Virus record (IMG/VR): IMGVR_UViG_3300025132_000377
Coordinates: 1-21,035 of that record
Length of the DNA stretch: 21,035 bases
Direction: 5' to 3' (one strand)
Origin: a virus
Shown: positions 7,021 through 11,779 of the stretch, piece after piece
How the letters are laid out: every line of letters starts with the position of its first letter
How positions within the stretch are numbered: position 1 is the stretch's first letter
Translations under genes and position numbers: made by a program
The notes under the pieces: model-generated
What the model saw: only the letters and a program-made list of their open reading frames with translations
Database searches by the model: none
What the model was told of the DNA's origin: nothing

Positions 7021-7840
7021 TAATAAAGGTGATGCTACATCACAAGAGAAAATAAATAAACAACAAGAAATTGATTTTGGAAGAGAGCAAGAAGAGTGGA
7101 ATAAGCAATATGCTAAAACTTTCTTGGCTAGAAAAGATAAGAAAAGTAGATTAGTTTTAGGTATTTGGGGTAAGCCTAAAACAGGTAAAACAGGATTGTC
7201 ATTAGACTTTGCTGATAGACCAATATATGTGTTAGATTGGGATAGAGGTGTTGAATCAACATGGAAAGAACACCATGACTCAACCGATAGAATACACATA
7301 CATTGCCCTATCTTTAGAGATAAAAGAAACGTAATAGATATTAATAAATCTGAGAAAGAATCATTAATGTTCATCAATTATGTAAGACAGAAAATTGCCG
7401 AAGGCGAAGAACCTGTTTTTGTATTCGATGGTGTTGATACTTACTTTTCATCATGTTTGTTAAAAGTTAATTCTGACCCTACTAAAGTTACTAAGGTAAT
7501 GCCTTGGCAATACGGTGAAAGAAATAAAACATTTCAGTTTATGATGGAAGCAGTATATTCTTTGAATTGTGATATTATTTACATAACACATGAGAAAGAA
7601 CAATACATAGATAATACCGTTGTAGGTTTCATACCTGCATGGCAAGATTGGGGCGGTAAACTAGAACAAGAAATTAGATGTTATAGTAAAGAATCTAAAG
7701 GCGAAATAAAATATTTTGCTAAGTTAATTGGTAGTAGAACTAAAGGTAATTTAGTAGGTACTATTTGGACTACAAGAGAAGGTAAACCCCCTAATGTGGT
7801 TTGGAATGGTATCTCCGAACTACGTGAGGGAGCAATATGA
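7007..7840 (+). CDS. RecA/RadA-like ATPase (Sak4-type recombination mediator)
   Basis: A 277-residue P-loop ATPase with Walker A GKPKTGKT at 55-62 (K61, T62) and Walker B PVFVFDGVD at 136-144 (D141). The beta strand and turn pattern around them, and IIYITHEKEQY further on, fit the RecA-fold Sak4/phage RadA-like proteins, which promote single-strand annealing or strand exchange with an SSB partner. The N-terminal 45 residues are charged and helical. A GTG at 6998 is in frame, but AGGTGA (6996-7001) sits 5 bases before the ATG at 7007. It overlaps the sliding-clamp gene by ATGA. A full RadA would be longer and carry a helix-hairpin-helix domain, so this is the short viral form. The exact subfamily is not certain. 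Confidence 0.75.
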   Translation: MWNNDNKGDATSQEKINKQQEIDFGREQEEWNKQYAKTFLARKDKKSRLVLGIWGKPKTGKTGLSLDFADRPIYVLDWDRGVESTWKEHHDSTDRIHIHCPIFRDKRNVIDINKSEKESLMFINYVRQKIAEGEEPVFVFDGVDTYFSSCLLKVNSDPTKVTKVMPWQYGERNKTFQFMMEAVYSLNCDIIYITHEKEQYIDNTVVGFIPAWQDWGGKLEQEIRCYSKESKGEIKYFAKLIGSRTKGNLVGTIWTTREGKPPNVVWNGISELREGAI

Positions 7841-8637
7841 AGAGTAGAATTAGTATAAATAGAAAGCAATTGATAGAATCATTAGACGCAGTTAGACTGA
7901 AAGGTAAGTATAAAAGCGCACATACCGCTAAATTAAGCAGTATAAGTAATGGAGTAACCGGAGTGATAAACGATGATGGTCTCTCTATTACTTTAGGAAA
8001 TGCAAGCGATACCTTAGCGGCTACTTGTTCAATACCTATAAGAGTATTAAATCCGTTAAATAGTACATCTCCAAAAATGTTTATTTTTGAAGTAGACATG
8101 GCTTTAAAATATCTTAAAACATTTAAAGAAGATATGATACATTTAGGAATAACAACTTCTAAAGTAACATTTTCTTCTGGTGGTAGACAGGCATCAGTAC
8201 CTTTGTTAGTAGAACATAATGGATTACCTGCCATTACAAAAGTAATGTCTATGGTTATACCTTTAGATGGTAGCCCACCAACATTCGGTAAGACTACATT
8301 TGAAACAATAATTCATTTAGAAGGAACTGTGTTAGCACAAGCAATCAAAGATTGTAATACGGTAGGAAATGCTACATACAAAATAGATTTCAGAAGTGCT
8401 AATTTCCCAGAACCTCCTAAACTAACATTGTCGTCTGTAAACTTCCAACAAACAGAAGAATATATTACAGAGATAGAGTTTATTTCTGCTAGTGGTGAAG
8501 ATGCAACATTAGAGTTTTCTGCACCATTAGATAAGTTTACTGATGGACAAATGACTTTGTATTTGAAAGACGATTGCCCCATACTACTATGTGGGGTAAA
8601 TAGAAAATTAATAGTAGCACCTTATATTAGAGGATGA
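7837..8637 (+). CDS. pcn: Sliding clamp (PCNA-like)
   Basis: A 266-residue protein with the length and strand pattern of PCNA: two similar domains, each beginning with a helix that lines the DNA channel (RKQLIESLDAVRL, and EGTVLAQAIKDCNTVG in the second half). Near the C-terminus MTLYLKDDCPILL, then RKLIVAPYI, matches the end of archaeal and eukaryotic PCNA (strand, D-x-P-hydrophobic, strand, AP-hydrophobic). The clamp encircles DNA and tethers polymerase, ligase and nucleases. It overlaps the ATPase gene by ATGA, with GTGAGGGAG as ribosome binding site, and its stop lies within the ribosome binding site of the polymerase gene. The polymerase C-terminal fragment ends in a good PCNA-binding motif, which supports this call. 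Confidence 0.82.
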   Translation: MKSRISINRKQLIESLDAVRLKGKYKSAHTAKLSSISNGVTGVINDDGLSITLGNASDTLAATCSIPIRVLNPLNSTSPKMFIFEVDMALKYLKTFKEDMIHLGITTSKVTFSSGGRQASVPLLVEHNGLPAITKVMSMVIPLDGSPPTFGKTTFETIIHLEGTVLAQAIKDCNTVGNATYKIDFRSANFPEPPKLTLSSVNFQQTEEYITEIEFISASGEDATLEFSAPLDKFTDGQMTLYLKDDCPILLCGVNRKLIVAPYIRG

Positions 8638-8641
8638 TTAA

Positions 8642-10321
8642 ATGATAATTAACACAATAGATGAACAGAATAAAATCTCACTTAGATGGAGAGATAATAA
8701 TAATAATAGAATAGAAAAGGATGTAATGTTTGATGATTTCAAACCTTACTTCTATATTTATAATAGTGATGAAGAAGTAACATCAATGAGAGTAAGTGAT
8801 TACAGAAATAGAAACAATAGTTTCAATGTATCGCTTTCTTACACTCAAGATGGTGCAGTAGCACTAGATGGTAGATTGTTAAAGAAAGTTACATGGAGTC
8901 CATCATTACCTGCTTATGCTAAAGACATTAGAAATAATTGGGAAAATACATTTGAAGCAGATGTGCCATATCATTACAGATATGCAGTTGATGAATTAAA
9001 TTATTTAACAGAGTATAAACTTAGGAAAATCTATTGGGATTTAGAATGGCAACAAGGTGGCACACACGATGCAGCAATAACTTGTATTTCTTACTATGAT
9101 AATTATCAAGGTATCTATAATGTATTATGGTGGACTCCATTAGAGGCAGTACGTGATGTTAAAGGACACACTAAACCTTTTGAAAATGAACATGATATGT
9201 TAGAATCTTTTGTGAGGATTATTGAATCACATGACCCAGATATGTTAATTGCATGGTTTGGTTCTAAGTTCGATTTACCTAAACTTATTGAACGTCTTAA
9301 TGTAAATGATATTGACCCTAGAAGATTATCTCCTAATGGTATAGTCAAGGGAGTTTATTTTGATGATAGAAGTAGTAGTATTAAATTATCTAAAGCAGTA
9401 TCAAACTATTCTCCAACAGGTCAACCTGTTAAGGGTAGATTAATTCTTAATTTAGATTTAGCATTTGAAAGACAATGGAATGATTCACAAAAAGGAACAC
9501 TACCTTCAATGGCATTAGATTATATTTCTGAAACAGTATTGGGTGAAAAGAAATTAGTTAGTGAAAGATTTCCTGATAAGAATGATTTCTTTTCAAAGGG
9601 TTGGTTACTTGATACTCAAAACTATTTAGATTATGCTAGAAAGGATGTAGAGTTAATAGTAAAAATAGATGAACAGAATTATACTTCTGAATCAATTTTA
9701 GCATTACAAAGATTATTGATTGCACCTTTCGATGGTTGCTTCTATGCTAGTAATATGGGTGGAATGTATTTCATGCGTAATGCTACATGGAAAGCCCCAA
9801 CGGGAGACAAGCATAGTGATAGAGTAGATTATGAAGGTGCTATGATATATGACCCACTAATAGAAAAAACACATGGTTTACATTTAGGTGTAGCAGCATT
9901 TGACTTTGCACAATTGTACCCTTCGATGATGATAGCAAGAAATATTTCTTGGGAAACGAAAAGTGTAGAGCCAACAGATTTCGCTGTTAACATATTAACA
10001 CCTAGAGATTTTAGCGAGGTAACTAGAAAGGATGTAAGATACTTCAAAACAGATACTCTAGGTTTATTACCTAAAGCAGTTTTAGAACTTAAAGCGTTGA
10101 GAGATGATTATAAGAAGAAGATGAGGACATCAAAAACTAAAGAAGAACAGGCTAAGTGGAACAGTAACCAATTAGCAGTAAAGCGACTCATGGCATCTTT
10201 CTACGGCATTACCGCGTATCAAGGATTTGGTTGGGCTGATGTGGATATAGCGGCTGCTATAACTGCTAGTGCTAGAGAAGCAATTAGAGAAGTAGCGTTT
10301 AAAGTGAGGGAATTAGAATAG
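8642..10321 (+). CDS. polB: Family B DNA polymerase, N-terminal part (exonuclease and polymerase motifs A and B)
   Basis: A 559-residue protein holding the N-terminal domain, the proofreading exonuclease and part of the palm and fingers. Exonuclease motifs are D133/E135 (YWDLEW), D211 (SKFDLP) and Y331/D335 (YARKD), so 3'-5' proofreading should work. Motif A is DFAQLYPSM with D421, and motif B is KRLMASFYG with K514. The protein stops at residue 559 in the helix that normally leads to motif C; the missing part is encoded from 10883. The stop is intact and the next gene's AGGTGA overlaps it, so this is an ordered gene end rather than a random break. Methanothermobacter and Nanoarchaeum also have PolB in two pieces. 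The start follows AGGATGATTAAATG. Confidence 0.92.
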   Translation: MIINTIDEQNKISLRWRDNNNNRIEKDVMFDDFKPYFYIYNSDEEVTSMRVSDYRNRNNSFNVSLSYTQDGAVALDGRLLKKVTWSPSLPAYAKDIRNNWENTFEADVPYHYRYAVDELNYLTEYKLRKIYWDLEWQQGGTHDAAITCISYYDNYQGIYNVLWWTPLEAVRDVKGHTKPFENEHDMLESFVRIIESHDPDMLIAWFGSKFDLPKLIERLNVNDIDPRRLSPNGIVKGVYFDDRSSSIKLSKAVSNYSPTGQPVKGRLILNLDLAFERQWNDSQKGTLPSMALDYISETVLGEKKLVSERFPDKNDFFSKGWLLDTQNYLDYARKDVELIVKIDEQNYTSESILALQRLLIAPFDGCFYASNMGGMYFMRNATWKAPTGDKHSDRVDYEGAMIYDPLIEKTHGLHLGVAAFDFAQLYPSMMIARNISWETKSVEPTDFAVNILTPRDFSEVTRKDVRYFKTDTLGLLPKAVLELKALRDDYKKKMRTSKTKEEQAKWNSNQLAVKRLMASFYGITAYQGFGWADVDIAAAITASAREAIREVAFKVRELE

Positions 10322-10330
10322 GTGATATTT

Positions 10331-10600
10331 ATGGCAGGTCATAATAAAAATATATATCGTATATTAGCAATACATGAGTTTGCTGATACCTTGAAAGAAG
10401 GCGAACAGTTTCATATTAAAGAATGTGTTAATTTTCTTAACACTAGAAAAGCAACAGGAACAAACAGACCTCACAAACAAACGCAAACTGATAGTAGACA
10501 ACTACCAATGTTATTAAGATATACAGGTATGTTTACAAGTCTTGGCTATGGAGAATGGGTATTTGACGGTGTGCCAATTAGTAGGGGGAATAAACAATGA
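10331..10600 (+). CDS. Small helix-rich protein between the polymerase halves, 89 aa
   Basis: An 89-residue protein that may be a winged-helix DNA-binding domain: helices at YRILAIHEFADTL, FHIKECVNFLNTRK and SRQLPMLLRYTGMF are followed by GYGEWVFDG, which could be the wing. It has no intein or homing-endonuclease motifs. AGGTGA (10320-10325) lies 5 bases before the ATG at 10331, so this start is preferred over a GTG at 10322. Its stop overlaps the next micro-ORF by ATGA. It sits between the two polymerase halves and could be a polymerase accessory or a regulator; neither is proven. Confidence 0.65.
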   Translation: MAGHNKNIYRILAIHEFADTLKEGEQFHIKECVNFLNTRKATGTNRPHKQTQTDSRQLPMLLRYTGMFTSLGYGEWVFDGVPISRGNKQ

Positions 10601-10674
10601 AAGAGAGTATAACATATAAGATATTATATTTTATCGGATATGTATCAACTAAAATAAAGGAGTGGAAGAAATGA
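10597..10674 (+). CDS. Micro-ORF, 25 aa
   Basis: A 25-residue peptide with a hydrophobic, tyrosine-rich centre (YKILYFIGYVST) and a basic end. It starts at an ATG overlapping the previous stop (ATGA), with AGGGGGAA upstream, and its own stop overlaps the next gene by ATGA. The double overlap argues for translation. Function unknown. Confidence 0.42.
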   Translation: MKESITYKILYFIGYVSTKIKEWKK

Positions 10675-10886
10675 ATATAAAGAAGTGGAGAGAAGATTTT
10701 CATTATGATATAGGCCATTCTGGATATATGGTATGGAGAGAACAATATATACCTGTTACCGTTGTTGGTAAAACGCATTATGAAAATGGTGCTAGAAAAG
10801 GTTCTGTTGTTGTAACTAAATGGAATCAAAAGAAGAAAGTAATTAAGTTATTTACTAAGAAAGAAGTAAAGGAGTTTTCAATATGA
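10671..10886 (+). CDS. Small basic protein between the polymerase halves, 71 aa
   Basis: A 71-residue lysine-rich protein with beta strands (GYMVWREQYIPVTVVGKTHY, GSVVVTKW, KKVIKLFTKKEV), perhaps a small beta-barrel of the SH3 or OB type that binds nucleic acid. AAAGGAGTG lies upstream of the ATG at 10671; an in-frame GTG at 10662 is less likely. It overlaps both neighbours by ATGA, and the following gene is the C-terminal polymerase fragment, so the two are probably translated together. No family is recognised. Confidence 0.6.
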   Translation: MNIKKWREDFHYDIGHSGYMVWREQYIPVTVVGKTHYENGARKGSVVVTKWNQKKKVIKLFTKKEVKEFSI

Positions 10887-11779
10887 AAGTAGTATACGGC
10901 CATACAGATTCTATCTATGTTAAAATGCCTATGGAAAGAGCAGAAGAAACTTTAGCATTATTAAATAATCATGTTAGAGGGAAGTTTCCTAATCTTCTAG
11001 GTTTAGAAACACATCCTGTTAATTTAGAGTTTGAAAAATACTATCATTCATTAGGTGTAGGTACTACTAAGAATAGAAATGCAGGGCTTATCTCTTGGAA
11101 AGATGGTAAGCAGTTATCAGAACTTGAGTTTGTTATGACAGGATTTACTGCTAAGAGATTAAGTATAACAAAATTAGCAAGAGAAACTCAGATGAGTGTT
11201 CTCAAAATGTGGGTTGGTGAATATACTGAACAACAAATAACTTCTATGTTAAAAGAAGCATATAATCTGGTTCTTAATGGTGGTATAGATAGAGACTATA
11301 TATCTAATAGAAGTAGATATAGAAGTGAAAGATTAACATATAAATGTAAACATTGTGATAAGAAATATTTATTGGAAGAAGCGTGTAAGTTACACAGCGA
11401 AGGTTATTGTTCTAAGTGTGGAAAAGATATAGATTTAGTTACATTAGAAGGAAAGAAGCCTAGTATTGGTTCTGGTATAGAAGGAGTTATTTGGAATAAC
11501 CAAACACAACAAAACGAAATAGACGATTCATATGTATCTATTAGAGTGGCAGATGACTTGAAAAGACCCACATATATTAATCCGGTAACGGGTGTGAGAA
11601 AGAGACCTACATATATTTCTGCAAACACTAAAGAAGAATTGTTGAAATATACTCCAGATTGGGCGCATTATGCGGAGTCAATTTTAAAGAAGGCAGAACC
11701 AATATACAAAGCAATGGGGTGGAATCTTGACCCAATTAAACGAGATAATAATCAAAAGTCATTAGACGATTGGTGGTGA
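10883..11779 (+). CDS. polB: Family B DNA polymerase, C-terminal part (motif C, thumb, PCNA-binding tail)
   Basis: A 298-residue protein that begins at motif C, YGHTDS (residues 5-10), and carries the rest of the palm and the thumb. It continues directly from the fragment ending at 10321, and joined they give about 857 residues. KNRNAGLISWKDG at 63-75 fits the palm segment after motif C. Five cysteines (155, 158, 168, 176, 179) in an insertion between palm and thumb form a zinc-ribbon-like module. The last eight residues, QKSLDDWW, match the PCNA-binding consensus. The first aspartate of the usual DTD is histidine here (H7); the second (D9) is kept. In other family B enzymes these acids serve metal-dependent catalysis, so activity may be altered. 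The start overlaps the previous stop by ATGA. Confidence 0.88.
   Translation: MKVVYGHTDSIYVKMPMERAEETLALLNNHVRGKFPNLLGLETHPVNLEFEKYYHSLGVGTTKNRNAGLISWKDGKQLSELEFVMTGFTAKRLSITKLARETQMSVLKMWVGEYTEQQITSMLKEAYNLVLNGGIDRDYISNRSRYRSERLTYKCKHCDKKYLLEEACKLHSEGYCSKCGKDIDLVTLEGKKPSIGSGIEGVIWNNQTQQNEIDDSYVSIRVADDLKRPTYINPVTGVRKRPTYISANTKEELLKYTPDWAHYAESILKKAEPIYKAMGWNLDPIKRDNNQKSLDDWW

What the first reader, a model, noticed from the sequence alone, without database searches (positions are those of the whole stretch)
8642..11779. Family B polymerase split between motifs B and C by three small genes
The N-terminal part ends in the helix before motif C and the second part begins four residues before YGHTDS. 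Nothing seems missing on joining (559 plus 298 residues). Three small genes linked by ATGA overlaps occupy the 561-base gap, and both halves keep their own ribosome binding sites, so the split looks stable. PolB is also in two pieces in Methanothermobacter and Nanoarchaeum, and the motif C region is a known intein insertion site, so an ancient intein loss is one explanation.
Basis: partly seen in the sequence, partly recalled or inferred. Interest (0 to 1): 0.72.

Follow-up and report, generated by a model that had tools for sequence, protein, structure and literature searches.

The report
Archaeal-virus DNA polymerase in two genes
In a large group of marine archaeal viruses the replicative DNA polymerase is permanently made as two separate proteins, and the spot between the two genes has become a parking place for small, exchangeable genes; the split itself was already annotated in one such virus, but its fixity, its swappable cargo and an odd active-site residue that goes with it appear undescribed.

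Summary
PolB is encoded by two ORFs, 8642-10321 (559 aa: exonuclease, motifs A and B) and 10883-11779 (298 aa: motif C, thumb, zinc ribbon, PIP-like tail). Three small ORFs chained by ATGA overlaps lie between them. Aligned with intact halovirus PolBs, nothing essential is missing.

The split is neither an assembly error nor recent. Among 162 distinct viral junctions none is fused, and the break is always at the same place, just before motif C. An independent DNA-motif scan found 101 of 101 YGHTDS sites at the start of a separate ORF. Both halves are under strong purifying selection. A linker-joined AlphaFold model matches solved archaeal PolBs over its length.

The three small genes are not part of the enzyme and did not cause the split. 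The gap runs from -4 nt (a bare ATGA overlap) to 2.8 kb and holds about 65 small-gene families in changing combinations. The window's third gene is 97% identical in DNA to one in a relative whose polymerase halves are only 63-70% identical in protein. Intein loss is not supported.

The viruses look like magroviruses, and PolB-NTD/CTD is already labelled in Aoguangviridae. New variant of a known kind.

The parts
8642..10321 (+). PolB N half: N-terminal domain, 3'-5' exonuclease (YWDLE; FD at D211; D335), palm part 1 with motif A (D421, DFAQLYPS) and motif B (KRLMASFYG); ends in the helix before motif C
   Evidence: Pfam PF00136 E 1.8e-20 and PF03104 E 5.2e-08; motif alignment with haloviruses and T4; conserved motifs over 197 N halves
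10883..11779 (+). PolB C half: motif C (YGHTDS), palm part 2, thumb, zinc-ribbon-like insert, C-terminal PIP-like QKSLDDWW
   Evidence: Pfam PF00136 E 5.5e-08, profile 222-339; YGHTDS in 152 of 152 and PIP-like tail in 145 of 152 C halves
10331..10600 (+). Cargo gene 1 (89 aa), family unknown
   Evidence: Homolog between the PolB halves of L039 (62 of 80 residues identical); no Pfam match
10597..10674 (+). Cargo gene 2 (25 aa), small hydrophobic/basic peptide
   Evidence: ATGA overlaps on both sides; cluster 11, 7 members
10671..10886 (+). Cargo gene 3 (71 aa), family unknown; 97.2% DNA identity to the gene at the same position in L020, identity block bounded by the two ATGA junctions
10319..10330 (+). 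N-half stop TAG and overlapping AGGTGA ribosome-binding-like site for cargo gene 1
   Evidence: Sequence
10871..10886 (+). AAGGAG plus ATGA coupler at the start of PolB-C, carried on the end of cargo gene 3
   Evidence: Sequence
7837..8637 (+). Putative sliding clamp directly upstream of PolB-N
   Evidence: 6 of 27 orthologs match PHROG 947 processivity factor, best 2.8e-07; weak beta-clamp matches in PDB, best E 0.008; the window protein itself has no match

Best explanation
The virus makes its replicative family B DNA polymerase as two polypeptides that assemble into one enzyme: N (exonuclease, fingers, motifs A and B) and C (motif C, thumb, clamp-binding-like tail). The break lies in the palm, between the last helix before motif C and the motif C hairpin. 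It arose once or very early in this virus group and has been kept since. Because the former interior of the gene is now a gene border, small genes can be inserted, lost and exchanged there as ATGA-linked cassettes. They sit inside the operon and keep N and C translationally coupled, but they are not needed for the polymerase. Shown: fixed break, both halves conserved and under purifying selection, variable and mobile cargo, no intact copy seen. Inferred: physical assembly of N and C, translational coupling, a single origin.
For: 162 distinct junctions, 0 fused; C follows N on the same strand wherever more than 2.5 kb downstream is held. DNA-motif scan not conditioned on a start codon: 101 of 101 distinct YGHTDS sites lie at the start of a separate ORF, at most 42 open codons upstream. 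Alignment with intact halovirus PolBs shows no missing block. Median dN/dS 0.11 (N) and 0.08 (C). 25 contigs of 71-98 kb carry this PolB and no second one. Yeast Pol delta 3iay is covered by N (312-674) and C (692-822) in order. Linker-joined AlphaFold model, pLDDT 83.8, pTM 0.69, matches Tgo/KOD PolB, TM about 0.65 (by query) and 0.76 (by target). Cargo: gap -4 to 2,819 nt, median 511; about 65 families in 99 junctions; N-C border filled in 95 of 99, against 0 of 64 to 37 of 94 at the borders that normally abut. Cassette transfer: window gene 3 vs L020 97.2% DNA while N/C are 70/63% in protein; L060/L215 98% over 161 nt with flanks near 71% in DNA.
Against: No experiment shows that N and C bind or polymerise. 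The AlphaFold test used a read-through linker and an unpaired alignment, so it tests compatibility with the PolB fold, not affinity. All sequences are metagenomic. Most contigs are fragments.
Confidence: 0.88

Rival explanations
1. Ancient intein loss: an intein at the motif C (pol-c) site once joined the halves and was imprecisely lost, leaving two genes.
For: The pol-c site is near, and erratic intein excision is the published guess for the Methanobacteriales split (PMC4104785).
Against: The break is 7 codons upstream of YGD|TDS (PMC549080), not at it; no Hint or homing-nuclease domain among the 40 gap proteins scanned.
Confidence: 0.15
2. A homing endonuclease or other selfish gene inserted into polB, split it and was later replaced by cargo, as considered for gp43A/gp43B of Aeromonas T4-like phage 25.
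For: Precedent for split genes with active products in T4-like phages (PMC2988022); the junction accepts insertions readily.
Against: No endonuclease of a homing family in the gap genes scanned; the phage 25 split lies between motifs A and B, so it is a different event. One CRESS-type Rep domain (L099) is a lone case.
Confidence: 0.3
3. A simple frameshift or start/stop mutation created the bare ATGA overlap, and cargo entered later.
For: The cargo-free form (ATGA or TAATG) exists at five junctions and needs only a small change from an intact gene; C begins mostly M-K or M-R, which makes ATGA (or GTGA) automatically (154 of 162).
Against: The cargo-free state is scattered (4 changes on the N tree), so the bare forms may be later deletions rather than relics.
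Confidence: 0.45
4. Assembly or sequencing error, or a decaying pseudogene.
For: Metagenome origin of all sequences.
Against: 162 distinct junctions with the same break, low dN/dS in both halves.
Confidence: 0.01
5. The halves are joined in the cell by splicing, trans-splicing or frameshifting.
For: The bare ATGA forms are only one frame apart.
Against: No Rfam intron at gathering threshold in seven sources, no intein pieces, and gaps full of genes under selection (dN/dS about 0.16-0.25 in most families).
Confidence: 0.04

Closest known systems
Magrovirus PolB-NTD/CTD (Aoguangviridae, Poseidoniales virus YSH_150918)
   Same: ICTV profile labels PolB N- and C-terminal domains separately in the genome map of a virus with the same kind of replication gene set (PMC10768690)
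   Different: Sequence ON649702 is not held here, so break point and gap content could not be compared; the profile text does not discuss the split
Split PolB3 of Methanobacteriales (Methanothermobacter)
   Same: PolB in two genes (Kelman 1999, cited in PMC4104785)
   Different: Cellular PolB3; break position and gene distance not tested here
Nanoarchaeum equitans PolB
   Same: Two separate gene pieces, cut near motif C
   Different: Could be rejoined by a split intein at the pol-c site (PMC549080, PMC4104785); none here, and the break is 7 codons upstream
gp43A/gp43B of T4-like Aeromonas phage 25
   Same: Viral PolB in two genes with a gene between them; products co-purify and are active (PMC2988022)
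   Different: Break between motifs A and B; the gap holds a homing endonuclease; related phage 44RR has a different arrangement (PMC2988022)
Halovirus PolBs (Druskaviridae, Hafunaviridae)
   Same: Best annotated relatives of the N half among phage records; linked to magrovirus PolBs in PMC7544198 and PMC10768690
   Different: Intact gene of about 860-914 aa, YGDTDS

Membership tests
Family B DNA polymerase | Exo I/II and motifs A, B, C in order | tested here: met
   motif C departs in one residue (YGHTDS)
Family B DNA polymerase | PolB fold when joined | tested here: met
   with a read-through linker
Family B DNA polymerase | Polymerase and exonuclease activity of the N+C pair | not testable with these tools
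   Needs protein
Magrovirales | PolB, clamp, clamp loader, ligase, AEP primase in the virus | tested here: met
   RFC-like, ligase and PolB clear; clamp and PriS weak
Magrovirales | Chaperonin gene common | tested here: inconclusive
   9 of 25 large related contigs have one; the window is a 21-kb fragment without one
Magrovirales | HK97 capsid, phylogeny with named members, Poseidoniales host | not tested
   Neither of the two named magrovirus records tried is in the collections
Split-intein PolB (N. equitans type) | Intein halves at the pol-c site | tested here: not met
   PMC549080
T4-like split gp43 | Break between motifs A and B | tested here: not met
Methanobacteriales split PolB3 | PolB3 sequence and same break | not tested
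   No sequence fetched

The most novel reading that the evidence does not exclude
The split is kept because it is useful: a recombination-prone border inside the replicase lets these viruses swap C halves and load accessory genes (toxins, Rep domains, zinc ribbons, membrane peptides) into the replication operon. The universal Asp-to-His change in motif C (YGHTDS) is part of the same ancestral remodelling of the active site.
Probability: 0.2. Interest if true: 0.75.

Novelty: new variant of a known kind. Interest (0 to 1): 0.5.

Why it matters
Replicases are among the least tolerant genes to disruption. Here a whole group of marine viruses runs on a replicase cut through its palm, a few residues before a catalytic motif, and the cut serves as a cargo site. 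This gives natural, diverse N/C pairs for testing how a two-chain polymerase assembles, a clear case of modular exchange of very small genes in archaeal viruses, and a motif C with His in place of the first Asp (no paper in the held library contains the string YGHTDS).

Tried and rejected
AmoC search, to test a thaumarchaeal host: no match, but the search rang nowhere, so it is uninformative. First AlphaFold run on a 39-row alignment was poor (pLDDT 71.6, pTM 0.47) and was replaced by a 112-row run. An apparent 987-aa open frame in three contigs came from the tool reading through stops; normal stops are present. N-versus-C trees for the L116 case lacked the right rows, so that case rests on identity profiles. 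Genome-contig scan: one hit, a contig binned as Maricaulis. tblastn of C in phage records: none. L183's long gap is an artefact of a frameshifted N half. A first version of the cassette-transfer script failed and was rerun.

Full report
Observation. PolB-N ends ...FKVRELE* and PolB-C starts MKVVYGHTDS. Pfam and NCBIfam profiles run off the end of N and resume in C, the NCBIfam one with about ten positions between. The small ORFs are 10331-10600, 10597-10674 and 10671-10886; gene 1/gene 2, gene 2/gene 3 and gene 3/PolB-C overlap by ATGA.

Conservation of the split. Scans with the N half, the C half and alignments of each found several hundred relatives in IMG/VR, the best 80 per scan being kept. 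After removing duplicates there were 197 distinct N 3' ends, 162 with a C half; none was fused, and the 35 without C all had 2.5 kb or less downstream. Because one C-half pattern contained a start Met, I ran a DNA scan for YGHTDS-x-YV without that condition: 101 of 101 distinct sites lie at the start of a separate ORF, in most about 300 aa (some cut by a contig end), with at most 42 open codons before the motif. Halovirus PolBs are intact and align across the break without a missing block.

Both halves are real. Exo I and motifs A and B are conserved, motif C is YGHTDS in 152 of 152, and 145 of 152 C halves end in a Qxx[LIMVF]xx[FWY][FWY] tail, a PIP-box-like pattern, fitting the putative clamp gene next to PolB-N. 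Median dN/dS is 0.11 for N and 0.08 for C. Each of 25 contigs of 71-98 kb holds this PolB and no other.

Structure. L019 has both halves in one frame with a 168-nt gap, so reading its stops as residues gives a 911-aa chain with a 57-residue meaningless linker. With 112 aligned rows AlphaFold gave pLDDT 83.8 and pTM 0.69; the linker is disordered, while the helix before it and the motif C hairpin after it are modelled with fair to good confidence. Foldseek aligns the model over its length to Tgo, KOD and Pfu PolB, TM about 0.65 by query and 0.76 by target for the best. This shows the halves are compatible with one PolB fold; it is not a test of binding.

The gap. Gap length runs from -4 to 2,819 nt, median 511. 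In 99 junctions there are about 65 families of small ORFs in shifting order; two of those 'families' are fragments of a frameshifted N half in L183. The N tail doubles as a ribosome-binding region: 149 of 157 junctions with cargo have a Shine-Dalgarno-like word there, against 13% of 12-nt windows inside PolB-N (the tail codons are also conserved in protein, so this is suggestive only); in 108 the N stop forms ATGA (or GTGA), 100 of these opening an ORF of 24 aa or more, and in 29 TAATG; 103 have an upstream ORF overlapping the C start. Compared with other borders of the same operon, N-C has more than 60 nt inserted in 95 of 99, against 14 of 97 (clamp-N), 37 of 94 (C-Cas4-like), 29 of 76 (primase-ERCC4) and 0 of 64 (ERCC4-DUF3987); two borders upstream of Sak4 and one at the far end are always filled, at least in the window by further genes. 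Most cargo families show purifying selection, dN/dS 0.16-0.25, one exception on 4 pairs. Pfam names three above its cut-off: PemK toxin, Viral_Rep, DUF2061.

Mobility. Window gene 3 is 97.2% identical in DNA to that of L020; the block begins at one ATG and ends at the ATGA of PolB-C, while the preceding gene is about half identical and the polymerase halves are 70% and 63% identical in protein. Other pairs: L060/L215 98% over 161 nt and L170/L193 97% over 118 nt, with flanks near 70% in DNA. L116 is about 97-100% identical to L117 up to the C start and then switches to mostly 83-99% identity with L121: in protein, N 100% and C 74% to L117, N 76% and C 96% to L121. A chimeric assembly cannot be excluded for that single contig.

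Identity and prior knowledge. The gene set (ligase, clamp loader, PolB, Cas4-like nuclease, XPF/Hef-like nuclease, weak PriS) fits magroviruses, viruses of Poseidoniales; this was not proven by capsid phylogeny. The ICTV profile of Aoguangviridae names PolB-NTD/CTD in the legend of its genome map (PMC10768690), so the split was seen there; I found no text discussing it. Key magrovirus papers, including the founding one, are not in the library, so the rest of the novelty claim is limited to what could be read.

Origin. The intein idea is weak: wrong position and no remains. A small mutation giving the bare ATGA form, or an insertion now lost, are both open; the cargo-free state needs four changes on the N tree and so does not by itself mark the ancestor.

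Noticed in passing
L099:5410-5751: A CRESS-virus-type Viral_Rep (HUH) domain, 114 aa, lies between the PolB halves of one relative (PF02407, E 4.4e-17).
   Followed up: partly
L071:8044-8382 and one homolog in L179: PemK/MazF-like toxin gene in the same gap (PF02452, E 4e-16); no antitoxin recognised.
   Followed up: no
window:10895-10912 and 151 other C halves: Motif C reads YGHTDS in every member, His for the first Asp, while the haloviruses compared and T4 keep Asp there.
   Followed up: partly
L116: Apparent recombinant with the N half and clamp of one lineage and the C half and downstream genes of another.
   Followed up: partly
L004, L005, L007 N halves: Extra zinc-ribbon-like insert (CxxCxT...CxxC) before motif A.
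   Followed up: no
window:16666-17262: Stand-alone protein with weak similarity to PolB/epsilon exonuclease domains.
   Followed up: no
window:18495-20888, minus strand: Long repetitive protein similar to phage tail spike/virion proteins, opposite strand to the replication genes.
   Followed up: no
L220 (NZMJ01000151.1): Contig binned as a Maricaulis MAG carries this virus PolB; probably a misbinned virus.
   Followed up: no
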